Assembly: GCA_020216655.1 (NCBI GenBank)
Contig: JAIWNU010000101.1
Span: 1-10,000, forward strand
Direction of reading: 5' to 3'
DNA from: Treponema sp.
Lineage (GTDB): Bacteria > Spirochaetota > Spirochaetia > Treponematales > Breznakiellaceae
Length of the DNA: 10,000 nt
The position numbers were made by a program, and so were the translations under genes. Below, one piece after another: positions 1 through 9,874 of this stretch. The notes beneath the pieces are model-generated. The model saw only the letters and a program-made list of their open reading frames with translations. It made no database searches and was not told the DNA's origin. Positions within the stretch are counted from its first letter, which is position 1, and each line of letters opens with the position of its first letter.

Positions 1-1417
1 TAGTTATAGAAAACTGAGGAAAGCTGGCCCGGCCTTCGTAAGGTTCATCAACCATACCGGTAACACTGACCCAGCGGTCTTTCCAGGTATCATCGGGAGC
101 CTGGTCTCCGAAGGCGGCTAAACCTTCAGCCCAGAAAATGAGTTTAATGCCGCCCCTTCTCCAATCATTAAAATTCACAAACACATAAGGGTCGTCGTAT
201 TTTGTTCTGCCCTTTTTAACCTCATGTATCTTGCCGATCAGTTCTATTTTCTGTCCGATTATTGGCAGGCTTTCAAGAAATGGCATTGGATTAAGAAGCC
301 CAATTTGCTGCACGAGGTAAAGAAAATTAGATGATGAATAAACTGGATAAACAGGCCGGTAAGATTTTGACTCCCGCCCTGCCGTTTTTCTGAGCCTTGT
401 TTCGGTAACCGCTTCTTTTTGAGTTGCCTCCGTTTGGGCCTTGATTATTTCTTGGGGGCCATGTGCTGCTTCAGTCTCTGTTGTATTTTCGAGCTTTATC
501 CCCGTCTTTTCGTGAAACTCCGCTAAAGTAGGCACCGCGTTGGAGGGACCTTCACAGATTGATGTAAATAATTCGCAGGCTGCGGTTAATGACGGAATGG
601 CGGTTGCCGCAGCAAGGAGTTGGCTGCTGTGGGGATTATAAAAGTCATCTGCCGTAAAAAGGATGTTTTCCCCTTGACTATAGGTTTCGAACAGGCCGGG
701 TTCTTCTTCCAAAATTGCCAAGCCCAGGTCCATGACTAAAAAGGGAAAGCGGTCGATCCCGTTCACATGCCGCTTCTCATCGGGATGCTGAAAATGGATG
801 TGCCCTTTTTCCCAGCGGCTATCATAAGCGTTCCGTTCTCCCAGACTGTCATAATCCAGCAGAATGGGATCATTGTGTTTGGTTATGGCGATGTTATTCG
901 CCTGGATATCCCCATGAACTATCTGGAATGCTTCAAGGTTGGACTGGAGCTTACAGAGCTTTTTTCGCAGGGCCCTCACCTGGTCCCGGTTGCGGTACTG
1001 TTTTTCGATCCAGGATGCCAGTACTGGTTCATCAACCCAGTCCATAATGATGGCCGGAACGGCTAGGTCTTCGACAAAAAAGCCGTTGCTAATCCAATGA
1101 GCCTCGATAAAGGCTGCTGCCAGCGGGTCCCGGCTGCTTGCGATACGGGCTGCTAGTCCATAGGCGGCTTCCATACTCGGGAGCCGCTCCTCCTGGGCGG
1201 AGTGGAAAAGGCGGAGGGCTTTTTTGGAACCATCCTTCAATATAAGTTGATAAATATAGGCAAAGCCACCTGAAATCGCCGCGGGGATTCCGTATGCGTT
1301 GGTCTGGATCTGGGCTCCTTCAAAACCGGCAAGTTTAAGGCTCCGATGCAAGTTCTCCGGGGCGATGGCCTTGTTGTAATCCTGTAGATTGGGCCACCTT
1401 TTCATAGTCGAATTCAT
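1..1417 (-). CDS. Atypical (YegI/TerY-P-type) protein kinase with C-terminal OB-fold-like domain; C-terminus beyond the window
   Basis: About 472 codons are open from an ATG at 1417 to the left edge, so the C-terminus is missing. Residues about 40-240 look like a divergent Ser/Thr kinase. The catalytic loop reads HGDIQANNIAI (168-178) and the metal-binding motif is DYDS (188-191) in place of DFG. GHIHFQHP (205-212) resembles the GHxxYQHP stretch I remember from YegI-like kinases. The usual VAIK lysine position appears as Arg (ALRLF, 67-71). A polar, Glu/Thr-rich linker (about 305-350) leads to a beta-rich module (about 385-472, with IELIGKIHEV and WVSVTGMV) that looks like a nucleic-acid-binding OB-fold. 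The ATG overlaps the phosphatase stop (ATGA), and a GGAG lies eight bases upstream, which supports this start over the second Met at residue 5. It probably phosphorylates a partner in the vWA/PP2C/kinase triad. The substrate is unknown. Confidence 0.85.
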   Translation of the reverse strand, partial: MNSTMKRWPNLQDYNKAIAPENLHRSLKLAGFEGAQIQTNAYGIPAAISGGFAYIYQLILKDGSKKALRLFHSAQEERLPSMEAAYGLAARIASSRDPLAAAFIEAHWISNGFFVEDLAVPAIIMDWVDEPVLASWIEKQYRNRDQVRALRKKLCKLQSNLEAFQIVHGDIQANNIAITKHNDPILLDYDSLGERNAYDSRWEKGHIHFQHPDEKRHVNGIDRFPFLVMDLGLAILEEEPGLFETYSQGENILFTADDFYNPHSSQLLAAATAIPSLTAACELFTSICEGPSNAVPTLAEFHEKTGIKLENTTETEAAHGPQEIIKAQTEATQKEAVTETRLRKTAGRESKSYRPVYPVYSSSNFLYLVQQIGLLNPMPFLESLPIIGQKIELIGKIHEVKKGRTKYDDPYVFVNFNDWRRGGIKLIFWAEGLAAFGDQAPDDTWKDRWVSVTGMVDEPYEGRASFPQFSIT

Positions 1418-2166
1418 AGTCGAAGCTCCAACAGGGTATAATCATCGGCGACAAGGGCCCCTATTTCTCTTGTTTGTGCGAGCTCATCTATCACTGCTTT
1501 AAGAGGCGCCTTCGTTATAAACTCCCACCACATACTTCTTTCTTCATCTGGCTTTGTAAGTATAAAAGCTGCTAAGGCATCGGTGCAGAGTATGAGCCGG
1601 GGCTGCTGCAAGCTCTGGATCTGCAGATGCCAGACCCTGCACGGTGGGATGGTGGTCCGTTTTGAACTGCCGATTAAGGGCGGGGTTAAGGAAAATTCTT
1701 CGCTTGCTGAAATTGGCAGATGCAGAATATCCCGATAGCGGTCCAGTACAAAAAGTTCCGTATCGCCCACGGTCCAGGCCGTAATTGTTTTGCCTCTCGG
1801 CGAAATACGGAGGGCAAGCAGGGTCGCCCAGGAGCCCCGAGCCTGGGATGCCTTGCTGAGCCAATCGTCCGCTGCAAGCTGTGCTTGGTTGTTTCTTTGG
1901 TATATCCTGCGGGCCCGATATATCCATAATTCCACCAATTTTTGTAGATTCCCGCGGCCATTACGTGGAACACGTTCAAGGCTTAACAAACCATTGACTA
2001 TATTCCAGGCGAGGCATTCTGCCCAAGCAGCAGCATCATAACTTTCGCTTGCCCCATCGCACAGAACCCAGGCAGTTGCTCCGCTGTTACTCTTGCCCCA
2101 AGCCCAGCGATCTTCGCCTCGTTCTCCATGGTAGGGGATTGAAATAAACCGTTCGAGGGTCGCCAT
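1414..2166 (-). CDS. PP2C-type serine/threonine protein phosphatase (TerY-P triad, PphC-like)
   Basis: 250 residues, a single PP2C domain with no membrane segment, so probably cytoplasmic. The motifs appear in family order: EDR (18-20), the metal-binding CDGAS (36-40), GSWATLL (111-117), VGDTE (133-137), CTDALA (194-199) and the C-terminal DDYTLL (241-246). Together they give the metal-ligand aspartates expected for a Mn/Mg-dependent phosphatase. The length is close to that of E. coli PphC (about 250 residues), which also sits between a vWA gene and a kinase gene. The ATG at 2166 shares one base with the stop of the vWA ORF (TAATG), and its own stop overlaps the kinase start (ATGA), so the three are probably translated in a coupled way. 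Expected role: to reverse phosphorylation by the neighbouring kinase. That role is inferred from context. Confidence 0.9.
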   Translation of the reverse strand: MATLERFISIPYHGERGEDRWAWGKSNSGATAWVLCDGASESYDAAAWAECLAWNIVNGLLSLERVPRNGRGNLQKLVELWIYRARRIYQRNNQAQLAADDWLSKASQARGSWATLLALRISPRGKTITAWTVGDTELFVLDRYRDILHLPISASEEFSLTPPLIGSSKRTTIPPCRVWHLQIQSLQQPRLILCTDALAAFILTKPDEERSMWWEFITKAPLKAVIDELAQTREIGALVADDYTLLELRL

Positions 2167-2687
2167 TACAGCATTTTCCCCGGCCGGGACCCCAGGTTCA
2201 AAAAGCGGGTAGCCAGATCTGCGCCTGCTCCGTATGCAAAAAAGCGGGAAGATCGGGATACTGAAAAGCCCTCCTGCCGAGCCGCTTCCACAAGATGTTC
2301 CGGCATAGGGCTTGAGATTCGATAAAGAAGACTGCCGTATTCATTGAGGCCCTCCGGAGATGCGGGAAAGATGACGGAGCGGCTCTCATTTTGGCGATCA
2401 TCCACATGGAGATTAAAAAGCAGGGTTTCTCCATCCTTGGTATGGATTTGGCGCAAAATGCGGGCAGGGCCTTCCGGGTCTCCATCGGTACTTTCGCCAT
2501 CGGTTATATTGATGACCGTCGGCGGGTATGATTCAGAATACTGGTCGCACCAGCGGGCCGCAATATGGCATACCTGTTCAAAGGCGGCCCTCATGGGGGT
2601 ATCTCCTTCGTTGATAACCGGAACCCAATGAGGGTGGGGTAGTCCTTCCCGGTCTTTCCGAATGGAGAGAGGCTGTTGCGCAAGCAC
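2166..2687 (-). CDS. C-terminal half of TerY/YegL-like vWA protein, separated from the first half by an in-frame TAG
   Basis: 173 codons from a possible GTG at 2687. It holds the second half of a von Willebrand A domain: GDTPM (28-32), giving the MIDAS threonine, and TVINITDGEST (57-67), giving the MIDAS aspartate, followed by the last strands and helices. It is in exactly the same frame as the ORF at 2700-3188, and only one TAG (2700-2702) breaks the reading frame. Half a Rossmann-like vWA fold is unlikely to fold alone. No good ribosome binding site stands before the GTG: the nearest GGAGG lies about 20 bases upstream, before the TAG. The piece is best read as part of one broken or recoded gene. 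It ends in TAATG with the phosphatase start. Confidence 0.75.
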   Translation of the reverse strand: MLAQQPLSIRKDREGLPHPHWVPVINEGDTPMRAAFEQVCHIAARWCDQYSESYPPTVINITDGESTDGDPEGPARILRQIHTKDGETLLFNLHVDDRQNESRSVIFPASPEGLNEYGSLLYRISSPMPEHLVEAARQEGFSVSRSSRFFAYGAGADLATRFLNLGSRPGKML

Positions 2688-2699
2688 AGAGATGGGAAC

Positions 2700-2702
2700 C
2701 TA
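2700..2702 (-). other. In-frame amber (TAG) codon inside the vWA gene
   Basis: On the minus strand the frame reads ...TCG GAG GAA GCA TAG GTT CCC ATC..., and both sides are open in the same frame. A CAG (Gln) to TAG change would explain it. TAG also ends the SpoIIE-type gene at 6294-6296, so TAG acts as an ordinary stop elsewhere in the window. Confidence 0.85.
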
Positions 2703-3188
2703 TGCTTCCTCCGATGAAAGTGGTTCCACCAGATTGCGGATCTCCCCATCTCCATAACCCACCAATGCTATATGGAAATAATCCCGGAGGCCGCCGGCCC
2801 TGTTGCACCGGGCAGCCAGCTCTTCGAGCAGTTGGTCCACCACATGAGCAAGATATTCGCTGCGGCTTAAGCCTGCACTATAATCGTTTGCCATGGAACC
2901 GGATTGGTCCAGCATAAAAAGAATAAGCGTAGGATGGTTCCTAGAAATATTTGCAGTGTAGGATCGCCGTATAGTGCTGTGCTGGCTTTTCTCTGCTTGG
3001 ACCGAAGGCAACTGATCTGGGTTCTGAGTGGGATTCGGGACTACATTTTCTGTGGTTTCCGGAGCCAAACGGTCTGGATCCATCATGGGATCAGTTGTTA
3101 TTTCTGCGGTTTTTGTGGCCTGTAACTGAGGTAATACTGCTGTATCAAGGAAGAATACGCATGTTCTCTGCCAGGGCTGCAAAATCAA
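2700..3188 (-). CDS. N-terminal half of TerY/YegL-like vWA protein (DxSxS MIDAS motif), ending at an in-frame TAG
   Basis: The open frame is 162 codons. A polar Pro/Thr/Gln-rich leader (to about residue 82) precedes the first half of a vWA domain: LILFMLDQSGSM (88-99) with the DxSxS metal-binding motif, then a helix and the strand IALVGYGD (140-147). The domain resumes beyond the TAG with its Thr and Asp motifs, so with read-through the product would be about 340 residues. The first possible start is a TTG at 3188 without a clear ribosome binding site, overlapping the upstream gene by 44 bases. The adjacent ATGs at 3086 and 3083 give a shorter and more likely N-terminus. vWA proteins of this type bind a divalent metal and a protein partner. 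In TerY-type clusters they are thought to link metal or stress sensing to the kinase and phosphatase. Whether this copy works depends on the TAG. Confidence 0.75.
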   Translation of the reverse strand: MILQPWQRTCVFFLDTAVLPQLQATKTAEITTDPMMDPDRLAPETTENVVPNPTQNPDQLPSVQAEKSQHSTIRRSYTANISRNHPTLILFMLDQSGSMANDYSAGLSRSEYLAHVVDQLLEELAARCNRAGGLRDYFHIALVGYGDGEIRNLVEPLSSEEA

Positions 3189-4146
3189 GCTGTTTCGATG
3201 CTGCTTCGGTAAGGCTCAGATTAAAATCAATCTGATCTAAGTCGCGGCTTGGATCCCGCATCTGTTCAAGAATTTCTGATACTATGTCGGCTTTCATCCT
3301 GCCCGCCAGAATGGTACTCATTAACCGATCCGAAACGGGTTCCAGGCTCGGACTTAATAGGTTGCCCCTTTCCAGCTCCGCGGAGAGTTTTTCTATCTCC
3401 GCCAGGCTTTCTCCCAGCCGCATATCGATTTGACTGATCTGGTCTACCAGGGTTCCGAGGGGCCCCAGGTTGTCCCTGAGGATGCTGTCAAAACTTAAGG
3501 CAATATTGGTAAGTTCTGCGATTTCCCGCTGAACCGCTGCCATTTTCCGGTTAAAATCGTAGTACTGCCGGTATAGGCCCACGTCGTTTTTAAGTTTTTC
3601 GTAGACCTCAAGTTGTTTTTCGTCGTCTGCCGCGAGGGTTTCCAGGGCATCCAGGGCATGGCGCAGCTTTTTAATGATCAGGATGGCGGCCCTGCTCAGG
3701 TTCGTTACCATGGTCCTGATTTCCTCTGCCTTTTCTTCAAAAACCTGGGCGCTGTCGCCATGCCCGGACTGTATAAACTGAGCTTGGAGCCGCTGCCGTT
3801 CCTGTTCGAGTTGTTCTAGATTAGCAAGTCGCGCAAGAAACTCTTCCTGTACCCCCTCCCCGATGGCCTCAAAGACCCGGCGGCAGCTTTTAATTTTGCT
3901 TCGGAGCAGTTGGATGAGCTCATCATAATTCTCCACCAGCTGTTCCATGCGTTCCATCCGTTCCTCTGGAGAGAGCTCTTCTTTTTTTACTAAAAAGGAG
4001 AAAAAGCCGCTCTTCTTTTCTTCAGCTGCAAGAACCTCCCGCTGTGTCTGGATTCTGTCCTGGAGCTCATTAAAATGGGAGTCCTTAATGACCGGGAGAT
4101 CATAATGTTTGCCAAAAAGGAAAAGACTCACAAATTGTTCATCCAT
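3145..4146 (-). CDS. Coiled-coil alpha-helical protein of unknown function, in the triad operon
   Basis: 333 residues, almost wholly helical and rich in Glu, Gln, Leu and Lys. There is no signal peptide and no membrane segment. Long heptad-like stretches appear at about 60-125, 135-215 and 235-262. A short N-terminal segment (1-25) and a C-terminal helical segment (about 270-330, ending AENMRILP) lie outside them. I do not recognise the family. In general form it resembles cytoplasmic scaffold proteins of the TelA/PspA type, but no diagnostic motif was seen. The ATG at 4146 has an AGGA about nine bases upstream. It starts 15 bases after the transglutaminase-like gene and overlaps, or closely precedes, the vWA gene. 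Its position suggests a scaffold or substrate joining the membrane proteins to the kinase/phosphatase module. This is inference from context only. Confidence 0.8.
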   Translation of the reverse strand: MDEQFVSLFLFGKHYDLPVIKDSHFNELQDRIQTQREVLAAEEKKSGFFSFLVKKEELSPEERMERMEQLVENYDELIQLLRSKIKSCRRVFEAIGEGVQEEFLARLANLEQLEQERQRLQAQFIQSGHGDSAQVFEEKAEEIRTMVTNLSRAAILIIKKLRHALDALETLAADDEKQLEVYEKLKNDVGLYRQYYDFNRKMAAVQREIAELTNIALSFDSILRDNLGPLGTLVDQISQIDMRLGESLAEIEKLSAELERGNLLSPSLEPVSDRLMSTILAGRMKADIVSEILEQMRDPSRDLDQIDFNLSLTEAASKQLDFAALAENMRILP

Positions 4147-4161
4147 TTTGGTTTGTCCTTT

Positions 4162-5268
4162 TTAATTACTGGTCCATGCAACGGTCATGGTGCTGCCCGG
4201 AAAGCTATAGCGACCAAGTTCCCAGTCTAAAACAAGCCATCGGTCATCCGTAGCAGTGTCCCGGCTCACCGCCAGGTTCATCGAGTTTTTTCCTAAATAG
4301 GAAGCTACGGCTTGTAGAACCCGGTCAGCTGCCGCCCCCCGGCCAATCCAAACTTCCGCCCATGCATGGCCCTGCTGTCCCCGGAATCCATGGATTATCC
4401 GGGATCGGCCACCTACCGCGATAATACAGGATGCCATGACTGAAGCATAATCATCACAGTCTCCCGCCAGGCCCAGGGCTATGGTTCTGCTTGCAGGGGA
4501 CGTATAGTCGGTCCAGGAAACCGCCGGATCGCTTACATATTTCCAGTTGCGGGACAGGGCCCCGTGTATGAGCACCAGCTGTTTCGCCCCTGCTGCGTTG
4601 GGAATTTTACTCCCCTGGGGATCATCCCAAGGGCCCGGAGCTGCGGTGGCAATTTTAACTGCAAAATCCCGTACCAGAGGATTGGTAGGCTGGACCGCAA
4701 GGTCGTAGCGGCCCCCTTTTACCGGGGCGTTATCCTTTTCGATACGACCCTGCAGGTCCTTGATAGCCTGCTTAGCCGCCTCAAGTTCTTTACTTAACAA
4801 AGCGCTGTCCTTAACGGATCGTTCAAGGGCCTTTTTGTCCTCCTCGCTCCGGGCGAGCCGTTCGGAAAGCTCTTTAAGGGCCTTTTCCTTTTCCTGTAAT
4901 GTTTTGTCCTTTTCTTCCACCACCTGCCGGACCGCCTTTTCGACCTCCGGATTTACATAGGACTTGCCCATGGTCGCCGAGATGGACTGCAGGGCCTTTT
5001 CAAAGGTACTGGCATCCATTCCGAGAGATGCAGAGCTGGCGGTAAAAGGAGACCAGGCGGTCAGTATAAAAAGGAGTAAAAGCGCAGGGATTGATGGGCC
5101 GAGCAAGGCCGGCAGGACTTTTACCTTTTCCGATCGGGCCATAAAAAGCCCCGTGATGATCGCCAGGGCTCCCGCAAATAAGGCCGGGCCCGGCTGGCTA
5201 AAGGGAGGGAAACGGAACAGGGCTGAACGGATGCTGGCAAGATAGGGGAGATCAAAGGCCCCCCGCAA
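4162..5268 (-). CDS. Membrane-anchored protein with coiled coil and transglutaminase-like (papain-fold) domain
   Basis: 368 codons from a TTG at 5268. Two hydrophobic segments (about 29-43 and 51-72) flank the basic loop ARSEKVK. A highly charged coiled coil follows (about 105-180), then a transglutaminase-core-like domain (about 190-368). The probable catalytic triad is Cys271 in GDCDDYAS, His301 in GHAWAEVW and Asp348 in WLVLDWE. The NWKYVSDP segment (241-248) is also typical of bacterial transglutaminase-like proteins. By the positive-inside rule the coiled coil and enzyme domain would face the periplasm, but this is uncertain. Such domains act as proteases, amidases or crosslinking enzymes, and the substrate cannot be told here. 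The TTG has no ribosome binding site and lies inside the end of the upstream ORF. A one-base change in a G run would make the two one protein. The next internal ATG is residue 43. Confidence 0.8.
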   Translation of the reverse strand: MRGAFDLPYLASIRSALFRFPPFSQPGPALFAGALAIITGLFMARSEKVKVLPALLGPSIPALLLLFILTAWSPFTASSASLGMDASTFEKALQSISATMGKSYVNPEVEKAVRQVVEEKDKTLQEKEKALKELSERLARSEEDKKALERSVKDSALLSKELEAAKQAIKDLQGRIEKDNAPVKGGRYDLAVQPTNPLVRDFAVKIATAAPGPWDDPQGSKIPNAAGAKQLVLIHGALSRNWKYVSDPAVSWTDYTSPASRTIALGLAGDCDDYASVMASCIIAVGGRSRIIHGFRGQQGHAWAEVWIGRGAAADRVLQAVASYLGKNSMNLAVSRDTATDDRWLVLDWELGRYSFPGSTMTVAWTSN

Positions 5269-5536
5269 AGAGGACTATGCCTGTTCCAAAGCCCGAAAGG
5301 AGGGGCAGGATACGGTTTACCGTCCCAAGGAGCATGGTGAGAACCGAGCTCGCTATAAAGACCGCAATGAGCACCCCCGGTTCGCCGAATGGACCAAAGG
5401 TTTTTTTGATGATCTGGAGCGGCTGGTCGATACCAAAGACCGCCAGTGCGGGTACCGCAAAGGCAAAAAGGCCGACGATGATACTGGTATTACCGATAGT
5501 TTCCAGGACCGATTTTTTTGGCTTTGTATTTTCCAT
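5252..5536 (-). CDS. Small multi-spanning membrane protein, possibly the N-terminal part of the next gene
   Basis: 94 codons from an ATG at 5536. A short basic N-terminus (MENTKPKKS) precedes hydrophobic segments at about 16-36, 54-72 and 75-92. The last one runs straight into the TGA, as if a helix were cut off. I do not recognise the family. The ORF overlaps the transglutaminase-like ORF by 17 bases at a run of six G. A fused product would have about 460 residues, with a natural multi-helix membrane domain before the coiled coil. There is no Shine-Dalgarno sequence before the ATG, but a candidate promoter sits close upstream, so this may be the first gene of the left-hand operon and may be translated from a leaderless message. 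It could instead be a real separate gene coupled to the next by overlap. Confidence 0.6.
   Translation of the reverse strand: MENTKPKKSVLETIGNTSIIVGLFAFAVPALAVFGIDQPLQIIKKTFGPFGEPGVLIAVFIASSVLTMLLGTVNRILPLLSGFGTGIVLFAGGL
5259..5264 (-). other. Run of six G at the junction of two overlapping membrane ORFs
   Basis: The minus strand reads TTTGCGGGGGGCCTTTGAT. In the upstream frame this gives F-A-G-G-L-stop, and in the downstream frame it continues as G-A-F-D-L-P. Removing one G, or a +1 shift, joins the frames as ...LFAGAFDLP.... Homopolymer G runs are common places for sequencing error and phase-variable slippage. Confidence 0.7.
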
Positions 5537-6222: not shown

Positions 6223-6273
6223 TCCTGTTTTCTGGATTGATGAATTACACGCAAAGCCTACCAGAAAACAGGA
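6223..6273. promoter_or_regulatory. Perfect 13-bp inverted repeat covering the ribosome binding site of the Nudix gene
   Basis: TCCTGTTTTCTGG (6223-6235) and CCAGAAAACAGGA (6261-6273) are exact reverse complements with a 25-base loop. Read on the minus strand, the second arm of the hairpin contains the AGGA that serves the ATG at 6216, so folding would hide the ribosome binding site. There is no T run after the stem, which argues against an intrinsic terminator for the upstream gene. The loop contains TGTAAT (minus strand, 6244-6249), a possible -10 box without a good -35, so the arms may instead be protein-binding half-sites around a promoter. Confidence 0.6.
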
Positions 6274-6293: not shown

Positions 6294-8408
6294 CTACGAC
6301 ACCTTTATCATGACCAGCATGGTAAGGTCGTCTTTGGGGGGCTCCCCTGCAAGGAAGCTTTTGAATTGCTGCAGGATATAGTCCCGGACCGCAGCGGCCC
6401 CCTGTTCTGCCGGAGCCTGAGAGAGGGCAGCGCGAATCCGGTCATTGCCGAAATCTTCGCCGGCAGCGTTTTTTGCCTCCACAAGACAATCTGAATAGAC
6501 TAGCAGCGCATCCCCGTTATGGATAGGGAAACGGAGGCTCCGGTACCCTTCGGAAAGACCTTCAAGGCCTATAAAACGGCCCCGGCTTTCGCCCTGACGG
6601 GATTCTACGGCTTTTACAATACCAGAACGGCCAGAGCGGTACAGGAGGTCAGGGTGACCTGCATTAACATATTCCACCCGGTCTCCGCTAAAGCGGAGCA
6701 GTATTCCGGTGAGATAATTTTCTATATTGCCCTTTTCAGCGATGAGTTTTTCATCAATCTTTTTCATGACCTCCCCAAGGGGTATGTCTCTACCATCTTT
6801 AAATTGGCGGTACACGACGGATTTTGCCAGCATGGCCACAAGCCCTGAGGCGATACCATGACCTGAAACGTCAAAAAGGCCCGCACCGAGCAGTGTTTTC
6901 CCATCAATATAAAAATCATAGAGGTCCCCGGAGACTCCCGCCATGGGTTCGAAGGCATAGGCAATATCCCAGTTTTCCAATACAGGCAAAAAGGCAGGAT
7001 AAAAACTTTTTTGGACAAACTCGGCCATTTTAAGGTCCCGTTGAGCCCGGTAGTTAGCTTCCTCCAGGGCCGCATTCACCTGCTGCAATTGGAGGTTCGC
7101 CTGGGACAGTTCCTCTGTCCGTTCCTTTACCTTGTTTTCCAAATGCAGGTTCAGGTCCTCAGCCTCGTTCCGTGCCCTGGCGAAACGGCCAGCGAGCAGA
7201 AAAAGAAAACTGATGAGGACAATTTGCCAGCCAAAACCGGTAATATAGGGGAAATTGTACAGCTTAAGAACCTCGTGCAAGAAAATGTCGAGCAGAGCAG
7301 TGAGAACCATAGGAGAAAAGCCGAGGAGCAGCGGCAGTGCATCCGGATCCTTTTTGAACAAAGAATCAAGGGGCATGTAGAGTACATACACAAGGGGCGG
7401 CAGGAGGAAAAATTGGGTAAAGAGCCTTATTTCCCTTAAGGTGGAATAATTGGGGCTTAGTAATACGATGCCTACCGGAATGATAAATAATATAATCCGC
7501 GCCCACAGCACCCAGGCAGGGTCGGTTCTCCGCAGATAGTCACGAACAAAACCGCAGAGTTTAAAGAGCATATAAAAGAGTACAAGATTGATGAATTTCT
7601 GGAAACTTACATAGGTCATCCAAGCAGGGGGCATGCCGGGCAGTTCGGTAATGAAAAAATTGGAAAGATAAAAAACGCTCAGCAGGTTAAGCAGCGCAAA
7701 GGAAAAATTTTCTTTGTCCTTTTTCCTTCTATAATAGAGTATGAAATGATACAGCGAAATGATGAGCATGACCGCCGCAAACATGAGGTTTACGGTAGAA
7801 TTCCAGAAATTTTCCCAGCGGCTTGCGTGAACCGTATCCTGTCTAAAACCGATGAAGGGGCGGGATGCAATGGAGCCCTCTCCATCAACCCAAATATGAA
7901 GGAGTACCGTAATAGGTTTGTGAAGCTGTATCGCTTCTGGCGGAATGGCATATTCCCGGGAGGTATTCCAATAACTAAAATAGTTAGGCGGGTTTCGGCC
8001 CGTGCTGCCAACGAAGACACCATTGACCCAGGTTTGATCGGTCATGGTAATTCTGCCCAAGAAAATACCCAAGGGGAGGGGGCTCAAGAAATCGACACTG
8101 GGAAATTCGCCCCGAATCCAGATATAGCCCCGTTTATTGGGAAGAAGCGTTTCAAGATTTGAGAGAGCCCTCTCTTCCAGGGGAGTAAAGACTAACTGCA
8201 GGCTTGTTTCCGGATTCGTCTGGGGTGTTACCTGGCCCTGAGCTGGATCCTGAGCCCAGTACCACTTCTGGGCTCTCAGCATTACTTTAAGGGCCGATGT
8301 TTCTTCGCTAATGGCTGCCAAGGGGAAACCTATTGCAGATAATTGCAGTACTAAAAAGAGCAATACCTTGAGCTGCAAATGTGATGTACGAATTTTCAGA
8401 AAACCCAT
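6294..8408 (-). CDS. Membrane sensor phosphatase: extracytoplasmic domain, 7TM block, coiled coil, SpoIIE/RsbU-type PP2C
   Basis: 704 residues. A signal peptide or first helix (about 12-33) is followed by a probable periplasmic beta-rich domain (about 40-195, with YIWIRGEFP and TWVNGVFVGSTGR resembling a jelly-roll fold). About seven membrane helices follow between 204 and 408, the layout of 7TMR-DISM receptors. A coiled coil (about 411-460) then joins them to a SpoIIE-type phosphatase domain (about 462-704). Phosphatase motifs: SGDLYDF (493-499), FDVSGHG (512-518), NAGHPDLLY (582-590), YSDCLVEA (638-645) and KDDLTMLV (692-699). The family dephosphorylates anti-sigma-factor antagonists, so this is probably a sensor feeding a partner-switching pathway. 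No antagonist or anti-sigma factor is in the window. The YSDC position usually has Gly where Cys is seen. The ATG at 8408 is well placed behind AGGAGGT (8414-8420). It starts 23 bases after the symporter, so probably the same operon. It ends with TAG. Confidence 0.92.
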   Translation of the reverse strand: MGFLKIRTSHLQLKVLLFLVLQLSAIGFPLAAISEETSALKVMLRAQKWYWAQDPAQGQVTPQTNPETSLQLVFTPLEERALSNLETLLPNKRGYIWIRGEFPSVDFLSPLPLGIFLGRITMTDQTWVNGVFVGSTGRNPPNYFSYWNTSREYAIPPEAIQLHKPITVLLHIWVDGEGSIASRPFIGFRQDTVHASRWENFWNSTVNLMFAAVMLIISLYHFILYYRRKKDKENFSFALLNLLSVFYLSNFFITELPGMPPAWMTYVSFQKFINLVLFYMLFKLCGFVRDYLRRTDPAWVLWARIILFIIPVGIVLLSPNYSTLREIRLFTQFFLLPPLVYVLYMPLDSLFKKDPDALPLLLGFSPMVLTALLDIFLHEVLKLYNFPYITGFGWQIVLISFLFLLAGRFARARNEAEDLNLHLENKVKERTEELSQANLQLQQVNAALEEANYRAQRDLKMAEFVQKSFYPAFLPVLENWDIAYAFEPMAGVSGDLYDFYIDGKTLLGAGLFDVSGHGIASGLVAMLAKSVVYRQFKDGRDIPLGEVMKKIDEKLIAEKGNIENYLTGILLRFSGDRVEYVNAGHPDLLYRSGRSGIVKAVESRQGESRGRFIGLEGLSEGYRSLRFPIHNGDALLVYSDCLVEAKNAAGEDFGNDRIRAALSQAPAEQGAAAVRDYILQQFKSFLAGEPPKDDLTMLVMIKVS

Positions 8409-8431
8409 GGCAGACCTCCTAGCTTCGTCTC

Positions 8432-9874
8432 TTACTGTTTGTTGCTCTGCTGATGTTTTGCTAATGTAGCCTGTACCTGTTTTTCATTGTACAACAGGAG
8501 CAATATAAAGCCAATTGCGCAGAATGCAAGGGCAAAGAGGGTCGTAAGCCGGACACCTGCAACCCCAACCACATCCCCGGAGCCGCTCGAACCTGCCCCA
8601 ATCATTACGATAGATGGCAGCAGTACCGCGCCGATGGATTGGCCCATTTTGGACATAAAGGTCCGGAACCCAAAGAATACACCAGCCTTGTACATTCCCG
8701 TTTCAATAGCATAGGCTTCAGCCATATCAGAGACCATGGCATTGGGAAGGATGCCAAAAATGGCCAGAGGAATTGCCGCAAGAAGGGCTGCGATCAGCGC
8801 CTGGGTCATAGCCGGCAGTGGCAGATATCCAAAGAGGGCGCAGAAAGAGAACAGTATGCCAAAGAGCACGAAGGCAATCATAAGAAGCCGCTTGCGGCCC
8901 ACTGCCCGGGCTATAAAGTTAACCGGAATGTAAAAGGCAAAACTCACCAGGAACATTACAATGAAAAGGCTCGAATAGGTTTCCTTGGGAAGGCCCAGCA
9001 GCACGGTAATGTAATACATGAGCCCGTTGTTGATGAAATAAAGACTGATCCAATAGGCAAAGTCCGACAGGGTGAAACGGAGGAAATTTCGGTCCTTAAT
9101 AACATTGCCAATGCTGGTGAAGAAACCGTCATCGCAGGGTACAGATTCGGCATAGCGGTTTTCGTCTATCACAATAATAGGAAGTACCATCAATATAAAC
9201 GAAACTACTGCAAAGACGCCCTGAGCAGCTTGGAATGCCTGGAGCGGCGACATCCCTTGGGCTTGGAACATACCCTGGAGCGCAGGAGCTTGGGCTCCAA
9301 TCATGGCACCGAGAGCCCAGGTTATGGAAATCATGGTGGAAAGTTCAAGCCGTTCGTTGCTGCTGTGGCCAAGCTCACTCATCCAAGCAAAAAAGGGCGT
9401 TACATACATGGTCATAAAGAGGTAAAAGAGGGTCACGGTCACAAAGAGCCAAAGGCTGTTAGCGGTGATATTAGCCTGATCTCCGGTCCCGAAGGGGGCA
9501 ACGAACACAAGCACCGCAAAAAGCGCAAAGGGCAGAACCGCCACGGACATAAAGAAGCGGCGGCGGCCAATTTTAGATTTACTTCTGTCAGAAAAAACAG
9601 CAATGAGGGGATCGGTAATGGCGTCCCAGATACGGCCAAAGGCCAGGATAAGGCCGATAACGGTGAGTACCCCTACAATATACCCCTGGTGAATCATCCG
9701 AGGAAACAGGGCAGCTCCGCCTTCTTGGGGCGGCAGATAAAAATAGTTCAGAAAGTTGGCTGCCCCATAACTTGCCAAGGACCAACCGAGCTGTCCCAAA
9801 GCATAGATAATTTTTTTGGAAAATGGCAGGGATTCTACAACCCGGCCCTGTGCATTCATGACAGAATTGCTCAT
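8432..9874 (-). CDS. GPH-family (MelB-like) sugar:cation symporter, major facilitator superfamily
   Basis: 480 residues with about twelve hydrophobic segments. The family signature between helices 2 and 3 is plain: GRIWDAITDPLIAVFSD (80-96) followed by RSKSKIGRRR (97-106). The aspartates here match cation- and sugar-binding positions in MelB. The second half has the related loop GILPNAMVSDMAEAYAIETG (374-393) and a GQSIGA motif. Members import glycosides or oligosaccharides with Na+ or H+. The substrate cannot be read from sequence alone. The hydrophilic segment GFFTSIGNVIKDRNF (250-264) is the central cytoplasmic loop. The ATG at 9874 has AGGAGG (9881-9886) six bases upstream and overlaps the preceding gene's stop (ATGA). 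The length is normal for the family, so the gene appears intact. It is probably co-transcribed with the upstream partial gene and the downstream sensor phosphatase. Confidence 0.93.
   Translation of the reverse strand: MSNSVMNAQGRVVESLPFSKKIIYALGQLGWSLASYGAANFLNYFYLPPQEGGAALFPRMIHQGYIVGVLTVIGLILAFGRIWDAITDPLIAVFSDRSKSKIGRRRFFMSVAVLPFALFAVLVFVAPFGTGDQANITANSLWLFVTVTLFYLFMTMYVTPFFAWMSELGHSSNERLELSTMISITWALGAMIGAQAPALQGMFQAQGMSPLQAFQAAQGVFAVVSFILMVLPIIVIDENRYAESVPCDDGFFTSIGNVIKDRNFLRFTLSDFAYWISLYFINNGLMYYITVLLGLPKETYSSLFIVMFLVSFAFYIPVNFIARAVGRKRLLMIAFVLFGILFSFCALFGYLPLPAMTQALIAALLAAIPLAIFGILPNAMVSDMAEAYAIETGMYKAGVFFGFRTFMSKMGQSIGAVLLPSIVMIGAGSSGSGDVVGVAGVRLTTLFALAFCAIGFILLLLYNEKQVQATLAKHQQSNKQ

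What the first reader, a model, noticed from the sequence alone, without database searches (positions are those of the whole stretch)
1..5536. TerY-P-like vWA/PP2C/kinase triad with a transglutaminase-like membrane protein and a coiled-coil protein
Seen: five or six genes in one direction with overlaps or gaps of at most about 60 bases: membrane protein, membrane-anchored Cys-His-Asp enzyme, helical coiled-coil protein, vWA with MIDAS motifs, PP2C phosphatase, atypical kinase. Known: vWA (TerY/YegL), PP2C and a divergent kinase form the TerY-P triad of Ter-type stress and metal-response systems, and E. coli yegL-pphC-yegI is a small version. Inferred: the transglutaminase-like protein and coiled-coil protein extend the triad to the envelope, perhaps as a membrane sensor whose periplasmic enzyme domain or scaffold is controlled by phosphorylation. 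No TerB/C/D/Z gene is in the window, so the system may be a separate, Ter-independent variant.
Basis: partly seen in the sequence, partly recalled or inferred. Interest (0 to 1): 0.8.

Follow-up and report, generated by a model that had tools for sequence, protein, structure and literature searches.

The report
TerY-P phage-defence variant with membrane transglutaminase-like protein
The window holds a broken copy of a four-gene spirochaete system in which a known phage-defence kinase, phosphatase and sensor trio is joined to a membrane-anchored transglutaminase-like enzyme, which suggests a new way of wiring internal signalling to the cell envelope.

Summary
Among ten related spirochaete genomes, membrane part and transglutaminase-like (TGase) domain are one gene in all nine that have it, and coiled coil and vWA are one gene. 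The window copy has lost frame in both and has an in-frame TAG, while 21 control ORFs of the same genome show no lesion, so recent inactivation is likelier than sequencing noise. The kinase is cut by the contig end. vWA, PP2C and kinase match PADLOC's TerY, PP2C and STK_OB, the OB-fold TerY-P triad reported to act against T7-like phages. The order TGase, coil-TerY, PP2C, kinase recurs at different sites, in one genome near a type III RM system. In 296 Spirochaetota genomes, strong coil and strong STK_OB matches fall in the same five. Distinctive: a multi-TM, probably periplasmic TGase-like enzyme; an N-terminal coil on TerY, with distant relatives fused to FGE-sulfatase or GUN4 on cyanobacterial plasmids; a membrane tail on the kinase. 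Most likely an envelope-linked TerY-P defence variant. Antiphage activity, catalysis and topology are inferred, not shown.

The parts
5252..5536 (-). 5' piece of the membrane-TGase gene (AB): first three predicted TM segments; frame lost near 5264
   Evidence: one ORF in nine of nine relatives that have the gene
4162..5268 (-). 3' piece of AB: TM4 (weak) and TM5, a predicted helix of about 70 residues, transglutaminase-like domain (Cys codon at 4456-4458; Cys, His and Asp invariant in 8 of 8 aligned relatives)
3145..4146 (-). N-terminal helical 'coil' domain of the coil-TerY gene (CD); frame lost near 3151
2166..3188 (-). linker and TerY-type vWA domain of CD, with MIDAS residues (DxSxS, T, D); interrupted by an in-frame TAG at 2700-2702
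1414..2166 (-). PP2C phosphatase, open; conserved Asp residues kept; diverged patch at about 1601-2000 against the closest relative
2..1417 (-). STK_OB kinase, N-terminal 472 aa incl. kinase and OB region; cut by the contig end (full-length relatives examined are 556-656 aa and end in a hydrophobic tail)

Best explanation
The block is a degenerate copy of a four-gene system: (1) a multi-TM protein (probably five TM) carrying, on a predicted coiled-coil stalk, a transglutaminase-like Cys-His-Asp domain; (2) TerY with an N-terminal helical adaptor; (3) PP2C; (4) an OB-fold kinase with a C-terminal membrane tail. It is an envelope-linked variant of the stand-alone antiphage TerY-P triad. Proposed working: in the cytosol the kinase (OB domain perhaps reading nucleic acid) and PP2C set opposing phosphorylation states, with TerY as the metal-binding scaffold whose coil couples the switch to the membrane protein. 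On infection the switch turns on the TGase-like enzyme, which cuts or cross-links an envelope component and so blocks phage entry, release or cell survival. Shown by sequence: gene content, order, fusion, domain identities, hydrophobic segments, co-occurrence, broken window copy. Inferred: antiphage role, periplasmic side, enzymatic activity, coil-to-membrane contact, order of events.
For: PADLOC matches to all three triad parts in the window and in intact relatives. Passages seen: TerY-P acts against T7-like phages (PMC7699616); OB-fold TerY-P modules are stand-alone antiphage systems (PMC11090510); TerY-P in P. aeruginosa acts on Autographiviridae, most cells surviving though some death was seen (PMC10889362); TGase-like peptidase domains are predicted effectors in other bacterial conflict systems (PMC3710099, PMC8195603, PMC7159879). 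Order AB-CD-PP2C-kinase in related genomes. Strong coil and strong STK_OB matches in the same 5 of 296 Spirochaetota genomes; AB along its whole length in 4 of 296, the window's in two pieces. Different sites: in G001 the operon is near 132 kb while the window's SpoIIE/MFS flank is near 2.10 Mb without it. Defence genes among the neighbours tested: type III RM, HKD+Snf2, PDC-S01 in G001; HKD+Snf2, a IIG RM piece, PDC-S01 in L026; BrxL, PglZ, AbiE in G037. dN/dS 0.04-0.07 on AB and C pieces. Kinase tail in 6 of 6 full-length kinases examined. Five-TM layout with K/R inside puts the TGase outside in 8 of 8. TGase-like fold.
Against: No direct test of defence, activity or topology. Defence genes were sought only among chosen neighbours: the one G043 neighbour tested had no PADLOC match, G038 gave only an RtcR-type regulator, and G003's flanks were not scanned and look metabolic. 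In G001 a NUDIX homologue (44%) of the window's flank lies about 16 kb from the operon, so the two sites are not wholly unlike. TM4 is weak (KD over 1.6 in 3 of 8, 2 of 8). If it is not a TM, the K/R rule favours TGase outside in only 5 of 8, is tied in 2 and points inside in 1; on a recalled insertion-energy scale only TM2 scores as favourable in 8 of 8. The AB model is mediocre (mean pLDDT 63.9) and the coil part of the CD model is low-confidence. G037 has coil-TerY-P but no AB match, so AB is not obligatory. The enzyme's substrate is unknown.
Confidence: 0.55

Rival explanations
1. An envelope-stress or envelope-remodelling switch unrelated to phage: kinase, PP2C and TerY control a periplasmic TGase-like hydrolase or cross-linker, much as LapD controls the periplasmic cysteine protease LapG (Lap system recalled).
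Against: Patchy distribution (strong coil match in 5 of 296 Spirochaetota genomes), different sites, defence neighbours in three loci and broken or deleted alleles fit defence better than housekeeping. In the same list TglA (7.6) is tied with LapG and human TG3 follows at 6.3, so LapG is not singled out.
Confidence: 0.25
2. The triad alone is the defence unit; the TGase gene and coil are lineage-specific passengers.
For: Triads without coil or TGase exist (Calothrix and Acaryochloris plasmids, the 2 of 2 plasmid triads seen); G037 has coil-TerY-P and no AB match.
Against: AB is directly upstream in 10 of 11 genomes, in at least two families and with identity down to 43%; AB and coil pieces are under strong purifying selection; the coil is covalently part of TerY.
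Confidence: 0.15
3. The breaks in the window are assembly or sequencing errors and the operon is intact in the organism.
For: The genome is a 251-contig bin with contigs of exactly 10,000 bases; one lesion lies in a run of G; AB and C pieces still show low dN/dS.
Against: 3 lesions in 1,125 codons of AB and CD against 0 in 21 other ORFs (2,874 and 2,962 codons on two contigs, 1,652 in the window; ORFs picked mechanically, those under 80% covered left out). One lesion is a 20-base gap and one a substitution to TAG, not homopolymer noise.
Confidence: 0.25

Closest known systems
Stand-alone TerY-P antiphage system with STK-OB kinase (PADLOC TerY, PP2C, STK_OB; Gao et al. 2020, seen only through passages of PMC7699616 and PMC11090510)
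   Same: All three components, order vWA-PP2C-kinase, MIDAS residues, PP2C aspartates, OB region of the kinase
   Different: TerY carries an N-terminal helical domain of about 330 aa; a membrane TGase-like gene precedes it in 10 of 11 genomes; the kinases end in a hydrophobic tail (whether canonical ones do was not surveyed; the one Calothrix kinase aligned ends differently)
Kinase, PP2C and stand-alone vWA modules of GAP1-N2 GTPase-centred conflict systems (PMC7159879, passages seen)
   Same: Kinase, PP2C and vWA in neighbouring genes; there too the kinase can be fused to TM helices
   Different: Those belong to GAP1-N2-centred systems; GAP1 or tubulin genes were not noticed here (not searched)
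TerY-P triads of type II/III-A CoCoNuTs (PMC11090510, passages seen)
   Same: vWA, PP2C and kinase triad
   Different: There the kinase ends in a zinc ribbon; here it is the OB type; McrBC-like genes were not searched for
TGase-like peptidase domains as predicted effectors in other bacterial conflict systems (PMC3710099, PMC8195603, PMC7159879; passages seen)
   Same: TGase-like domain proposed to act on proteins as an effector
   Different: In the passages seen those domains are fused to or linked with HEPN, TERNS3, GreA/B-C or VMAP proteins, not with TerY-P
Lap system (LapG periplasmic TGase-like cysteine protease; recalled)
   Same: TGase-like fold, probable periplasmic side, control from the cytosol
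   Different: AB profile has no PDB sequence match at E 0.001; different control module; LapD and adhesin genes not sought
Cyanobacterial coil-FGE-sulfatase and coil-GUN4 proteins
   Same: Same helical N-terminal domain (A1 HMM 126.7 and 109.5 bits; best of 6,000 shuffles 11.8)
   Different: C-terminal domain is FGE-sulfatase or GUN4 instead of TerY; the FGE one lies beside a DGR avd gene

Membership tests
TerY-P triad (OB-kinase type) | TerY-type vWA with MIDAS residues | tested here: met
   PADLOC TerY 9.5e-70 with the TAG read through; 1.9e-73 in intact L018; D420, S422, S424, T523, D556 invariant in 6 rows
TerY-P triad (OB-kinase type) | PP2C adjacent downstream | tested here: met
TerY-P triad (OB-kinase type) | Kinase with C-terminal OB region | tested here: met
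   STK_OB 3.3e-83, protein 8-465 on profile 3-418 of 562; relatives
TerY-P triad (OB-kinase type) | Composed of the three genes only | tested here: not met
   AB gene directly upstream in 10 of 11 genomes; coil fused to TerY
TerY-P triad (OB-kinase type) | Antiphage activity | not testable with these tools
   no experiment possible; neighbours are only indirect evidence
Ter (tellurite/stress) system | TerD-family proteins | tested here: not met
   0 of 8 carrier genomes, control 2 of 14; other Ter genes not searched
CoCoNuT-associated TerY-P | Kinase C-terminus is a zinc ribbon | tested here: not met
   C-terminus is OB region, a PSNAELL-like motif and a hydrophobic tail
Transglutaminase-like superfamily | Transglut_core match and Cys-His-Asp | tested here: met
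   Pfam 38.6 bits over cut-off 23; C360, H390, D437 of L018 invariant in 8 of 8; their catalytic role is recalled from the family
LapG-type periplasmic protease | LapG-like fold | tested here: inconclusive

The most novel reading that the evidence does not exclude
A phage-defence system in which a cytosolic kinase/phosphatase/vWA switch controls an enzyme on the other side of the inner membrane: a stalked, periplasmic transglutaminase-like effector that remodels the envelope during infection. The helical domain on TerY would be a general coupling module that cyanobacteria attach to other domains (FGE-sulfatase beside a DGR, GUN4).
Probability: 0.3. Interest if true: 0.75.

Novelty: new variant of a known kind. 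Interest (0 to 1): 0.5.

Why it matters
The passages read here report that TerY-P protects cells but do not explain how; a putative effector gene in the same operon gives a testable output. If the TGase-like enzyme is the output, a protein-phosphorylation switch would act through the envelope, and intact copies exist, one in a single-contig genome. The case also shows how frame breaks can make four genes look like six.

Tried and rejected
Reading the six ORFs as six genes: rejected. Recoded TAG: not pursued beyond one read-through; relatives have a sense codon there and two other lesions sit in the same operon. Metal or tellurite Ter reading: TerD absent. Viral origin: no relative of the TGase or coil found in viral contigs. 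TGase gene on plasmids: no match. Coil structure: CD model too weak; Foldseek's three matches at E 0.001 are vWA domains and the rest for the coil are weak long-helix proteins. PDB sequence searches with AB and coil profiles: none for AB at 0.001, best 0.04 for the coil. G024's apparent split of coil and vWA coincides with a run of N. In one search, 26 of the 31 genomes had only weak kinase hits (best E 1.7e-7), treated as generic kinases and not counted. Weak coil hits in G121 (8.7e-4; 17.2 bits) and G006 (7.6e-5 over 118 residues) were not counted. Literature: the listings and the passages showed no TGase together with TerY-P; most listed papers were not opened, and the two primary TerY-P papers (Anantharaman 2012, Gao 2020) are not held, so prior mention there cannot be excluded.
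Full report
WHAT IS THERE. All genes of the finding lie on the minus strand. Pfam and PADLOC identify a transglutaminase-like domain (Transglut_core 1.4e-9), TerY (9.5e-70), PP2C (2.8e-25) and STK_OB (3.3e-83). Pfam alone gives only sub-threshold vWA and kinase hits and none for PP2C. The window is one complete 10,000-base contig of a 2.66 Mb, 251-contig bin; of seven other contigs fetched, three are also exactly 10,000 bases, so the end that cuts the kinase is probably artificial. The missing kinase end was not found elsewhere in the bin.

FOUR GENES, NOT SIX. The coil protein was sought in 58 genomes (own included): 9 matched, 8 strongly. In the seven strong relatives the reading frame is 417-840 aa against 338 in the window. 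Fetching the loci showed membrane piece and TGase piece as one ORF, and coil and vWA as one ORF (666, 742, 671, 806 and 782 aa as listed in L011, L012, L013, L015, L016, some from upstream starts). A scan of the GTDB contigs gave 9 loci, all titled as spirochaetes, incl. Gracilinema caldarium bin74, whose contig length equals that of G003, the closest relative (97% identity in the coil). Gracilinema is placed in Spirochaetota, Treponematales, Breznakiellaceae. Over the 11 genomes compared (G000, G001, G002, G003, G024, G037, G038, G043, and loci L020, L023, L026), AB lies directly upstream of CD in 10. PP2C follows CD in the 10 whose contig goes on, and the kinase follows in the 9 whose contig goes that far. 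The exception for AB is G037: its triad contig starts inside the coil, its other copy has other genes upstream, and the AB profile does not match its genome. CD is continuous in the relatives except G024, where a run of N sits in the linker, and G037's deleted copy; in L023 the contig ends within the vWA.

THE WINDOW COPY IS BROKEN. Against G003 the alignment has five gaps: one base near 6245 (intergenic), one at the contig end, 12 bases near 1424, one base near 5264 in AB and 20 bases near 3151 in CD; CD also has an in-frame TAG at 2700-2702. By one method for all (G003 ORFs of 100 aa or more, picked mechanically, at least 80% covered), 9 ORFs on contig C2, 8 on C20 (2,874 and 2,962 codons) and 4 others in the window (1,652 codons) had no frame change or early stop, while AB and CD (1,125 codons) had three lesions; the cut kinase fell below the coverage limit but has no frame-changing gap. 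dN/dS between window and G003: MFS 0.03, SpoIIE 0.07, NUDIX 0.15, A piece 0.04, B piece 0.06, C piece 0.07, D2 0.06, kinase 0.16, PP2C 0.34 (the D1 value there is invalid because of a frame slip of mine; redone: 128 of 146 residues identical). So constraint on AB and the coil held until recently. PP2C is the odd one: 77% protein identity, with a patch of 77-81% DNA identity at 1601-2000, as from allelic exchange or fast change. In G037 one contig carries a copy with about 3 kb missing, joining coil end to kinase end at 97% identity to the other copy. The locus thus decays in more than one lineage, as defence genes often do (general knowledge).

CO-OCCURRENCE AND SITE. Of 296 Spirochaetota genomes the coil profile hits 6 at E 0.001, 5 strongly (G000, G001, G037, G038, G043; G121 at 8.7e-4). 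STK_OB hits 31; matches with E below 1e-50 are in the same five, the other 26 are at best 1.7e-7. The AB profile hits 5: along its length in G000 (two pieces), G001, G038, G043, and mainly the membrane part in G041. The five fall in three families, G038 and G043 in one genus. A1 and A2 were built from some of these genomes, so these searches favour close relatives. In G001 the operon is near 132 kb, while the SpoIIE and MFS genes that flank it in the window are near 2.10 Mb with no operon; a 44% NUDIX homologue lies about 16 kb from the operon there.

DEFENCE NEIGHBOURS. PADLOC was run on chosen neighbours only. G001: HKD+Snf2 helicase 4e-123, PDC-S01 ATPases, type III methyltransferase 1.2e-246 and restriction enzyme 1.9e-234 some 7-12 kb away. 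L026: HKD+Snf2 3e-52, a IIG piece, PDC-S01. G037, beside the deleted copy: BrxL, PglZ, AbiEi and AbiEii. G038: an RtcR-type CARF regulator, and no match for a PrsW-like neighbour; one G043 neighbour tested (a chemoreceptor), no match. G003 flanks beyond the window were not scanned and look metabolic.

THE COIL ELSEWHERE. On cyanobacterial plasmids the same domain is fused to FGE-sulfatase beside an avd gene in Microcystis aeruginosa FD4 and to GUN4 in Nostoc; two Gloeothece GUN4 proteins also match, one over 18% of the query only. A profile from the spirochaete coils alone scores the first two 126.7 and 109.5 bits, against 11.8 for the best of 6,000 shuffles and 17.2 for the G121 ORF, the next natural one in the list. 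Plasmid triads without coil or TGase occur in Calothrix and Acaryochloris.

MECHANISM. From print (passages seen): OB-kinase TerY-P is a stand-alone antiphage module, the OB fold suggested to contact an oligonucleotide (PMC11090510); it acts on T7-like phages (PMC7699616) and Autographiviridae, with most cells surviving at low and high MOI though some death was seen (PMC10889362). TGase-like domains are predicted effectors in other conflict systems (PMC3710099, PMC8195603, PMC7159879), and kinases with TM helices beside PP2C and vWA have been described (PMC7159879). I infer that the kinase, tethered by its tail, and PP2C set the state of TerY or of the membrane protein, and that the TGase-like domain is the output on the envelope. 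Survival of most cells in the Pseudomonas work speaks for blocking the phage rather than killing the host; whether those systems have a TGase gene I did not examine. Which protein is phosphorylated, and what the enzyme cuts or joins, is unknown.

VERDICT. A new, envelope-linked variant of TerY-P, present here as a probably recently broken copy; real and conserved, mechanism open. No TGase together with TerY-P was seen in the literature searches and passages, but the two primary papers are not held.

Noticed in passing
L074:7001-9007, L075:6965-8650, L078:5974-7554: The coil domain is fused to FGE-sulfatase (beside a DGR avd gene) or GUN4 on cyanobacterial plasmids, suggesting a general adaptor module.
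   Followed up: partly
window 1601-2000: PP2C patch of 77-81% DNA identity to the closest relative, the lowest in the window (next lowest 82.5% at 9401-9600); PP2C dN/dS 0.34 is the highest of the genes validly compared.
   Followed up: partly
L017:7963-9164 and L063: G037 holds a triad contig and a second copy with about 3 kb missing between coil and kinase end, beside BrxL, PglZ and AbiE genes.
   Followed up: partly
L070, L072, L073: The multi-TM part of the TGase protein also matches proteins in G041, G038 and G043; the two read (L070, L073) end after the TM part without a TGase, and the L070 one has a TPR-like and a kinase-like protein (by eye) next to it.
   Followed up: no
L016:2785-4467, L023:2683-4368: An RtcR-type CARF/sigma-54 regulator (by profile in L016, similar by eye in L023) and, in L016, a PrsW-like protein lie upstream of the operon.
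   Followed up: no
window 6294-9874: A 7TMR-DISM/SpoIIE phosphatase and an MFS sugar transporter flank the operon; their homologues stay together in G001 at another site without the operon.
   Followed up: yes
G000 contigs C2, C3, C20, C113: Contigs of exactly 10,000 bases: the bin seems to have been chopped, so gene ends at contig borders may be artificial.
   Followed up: partly
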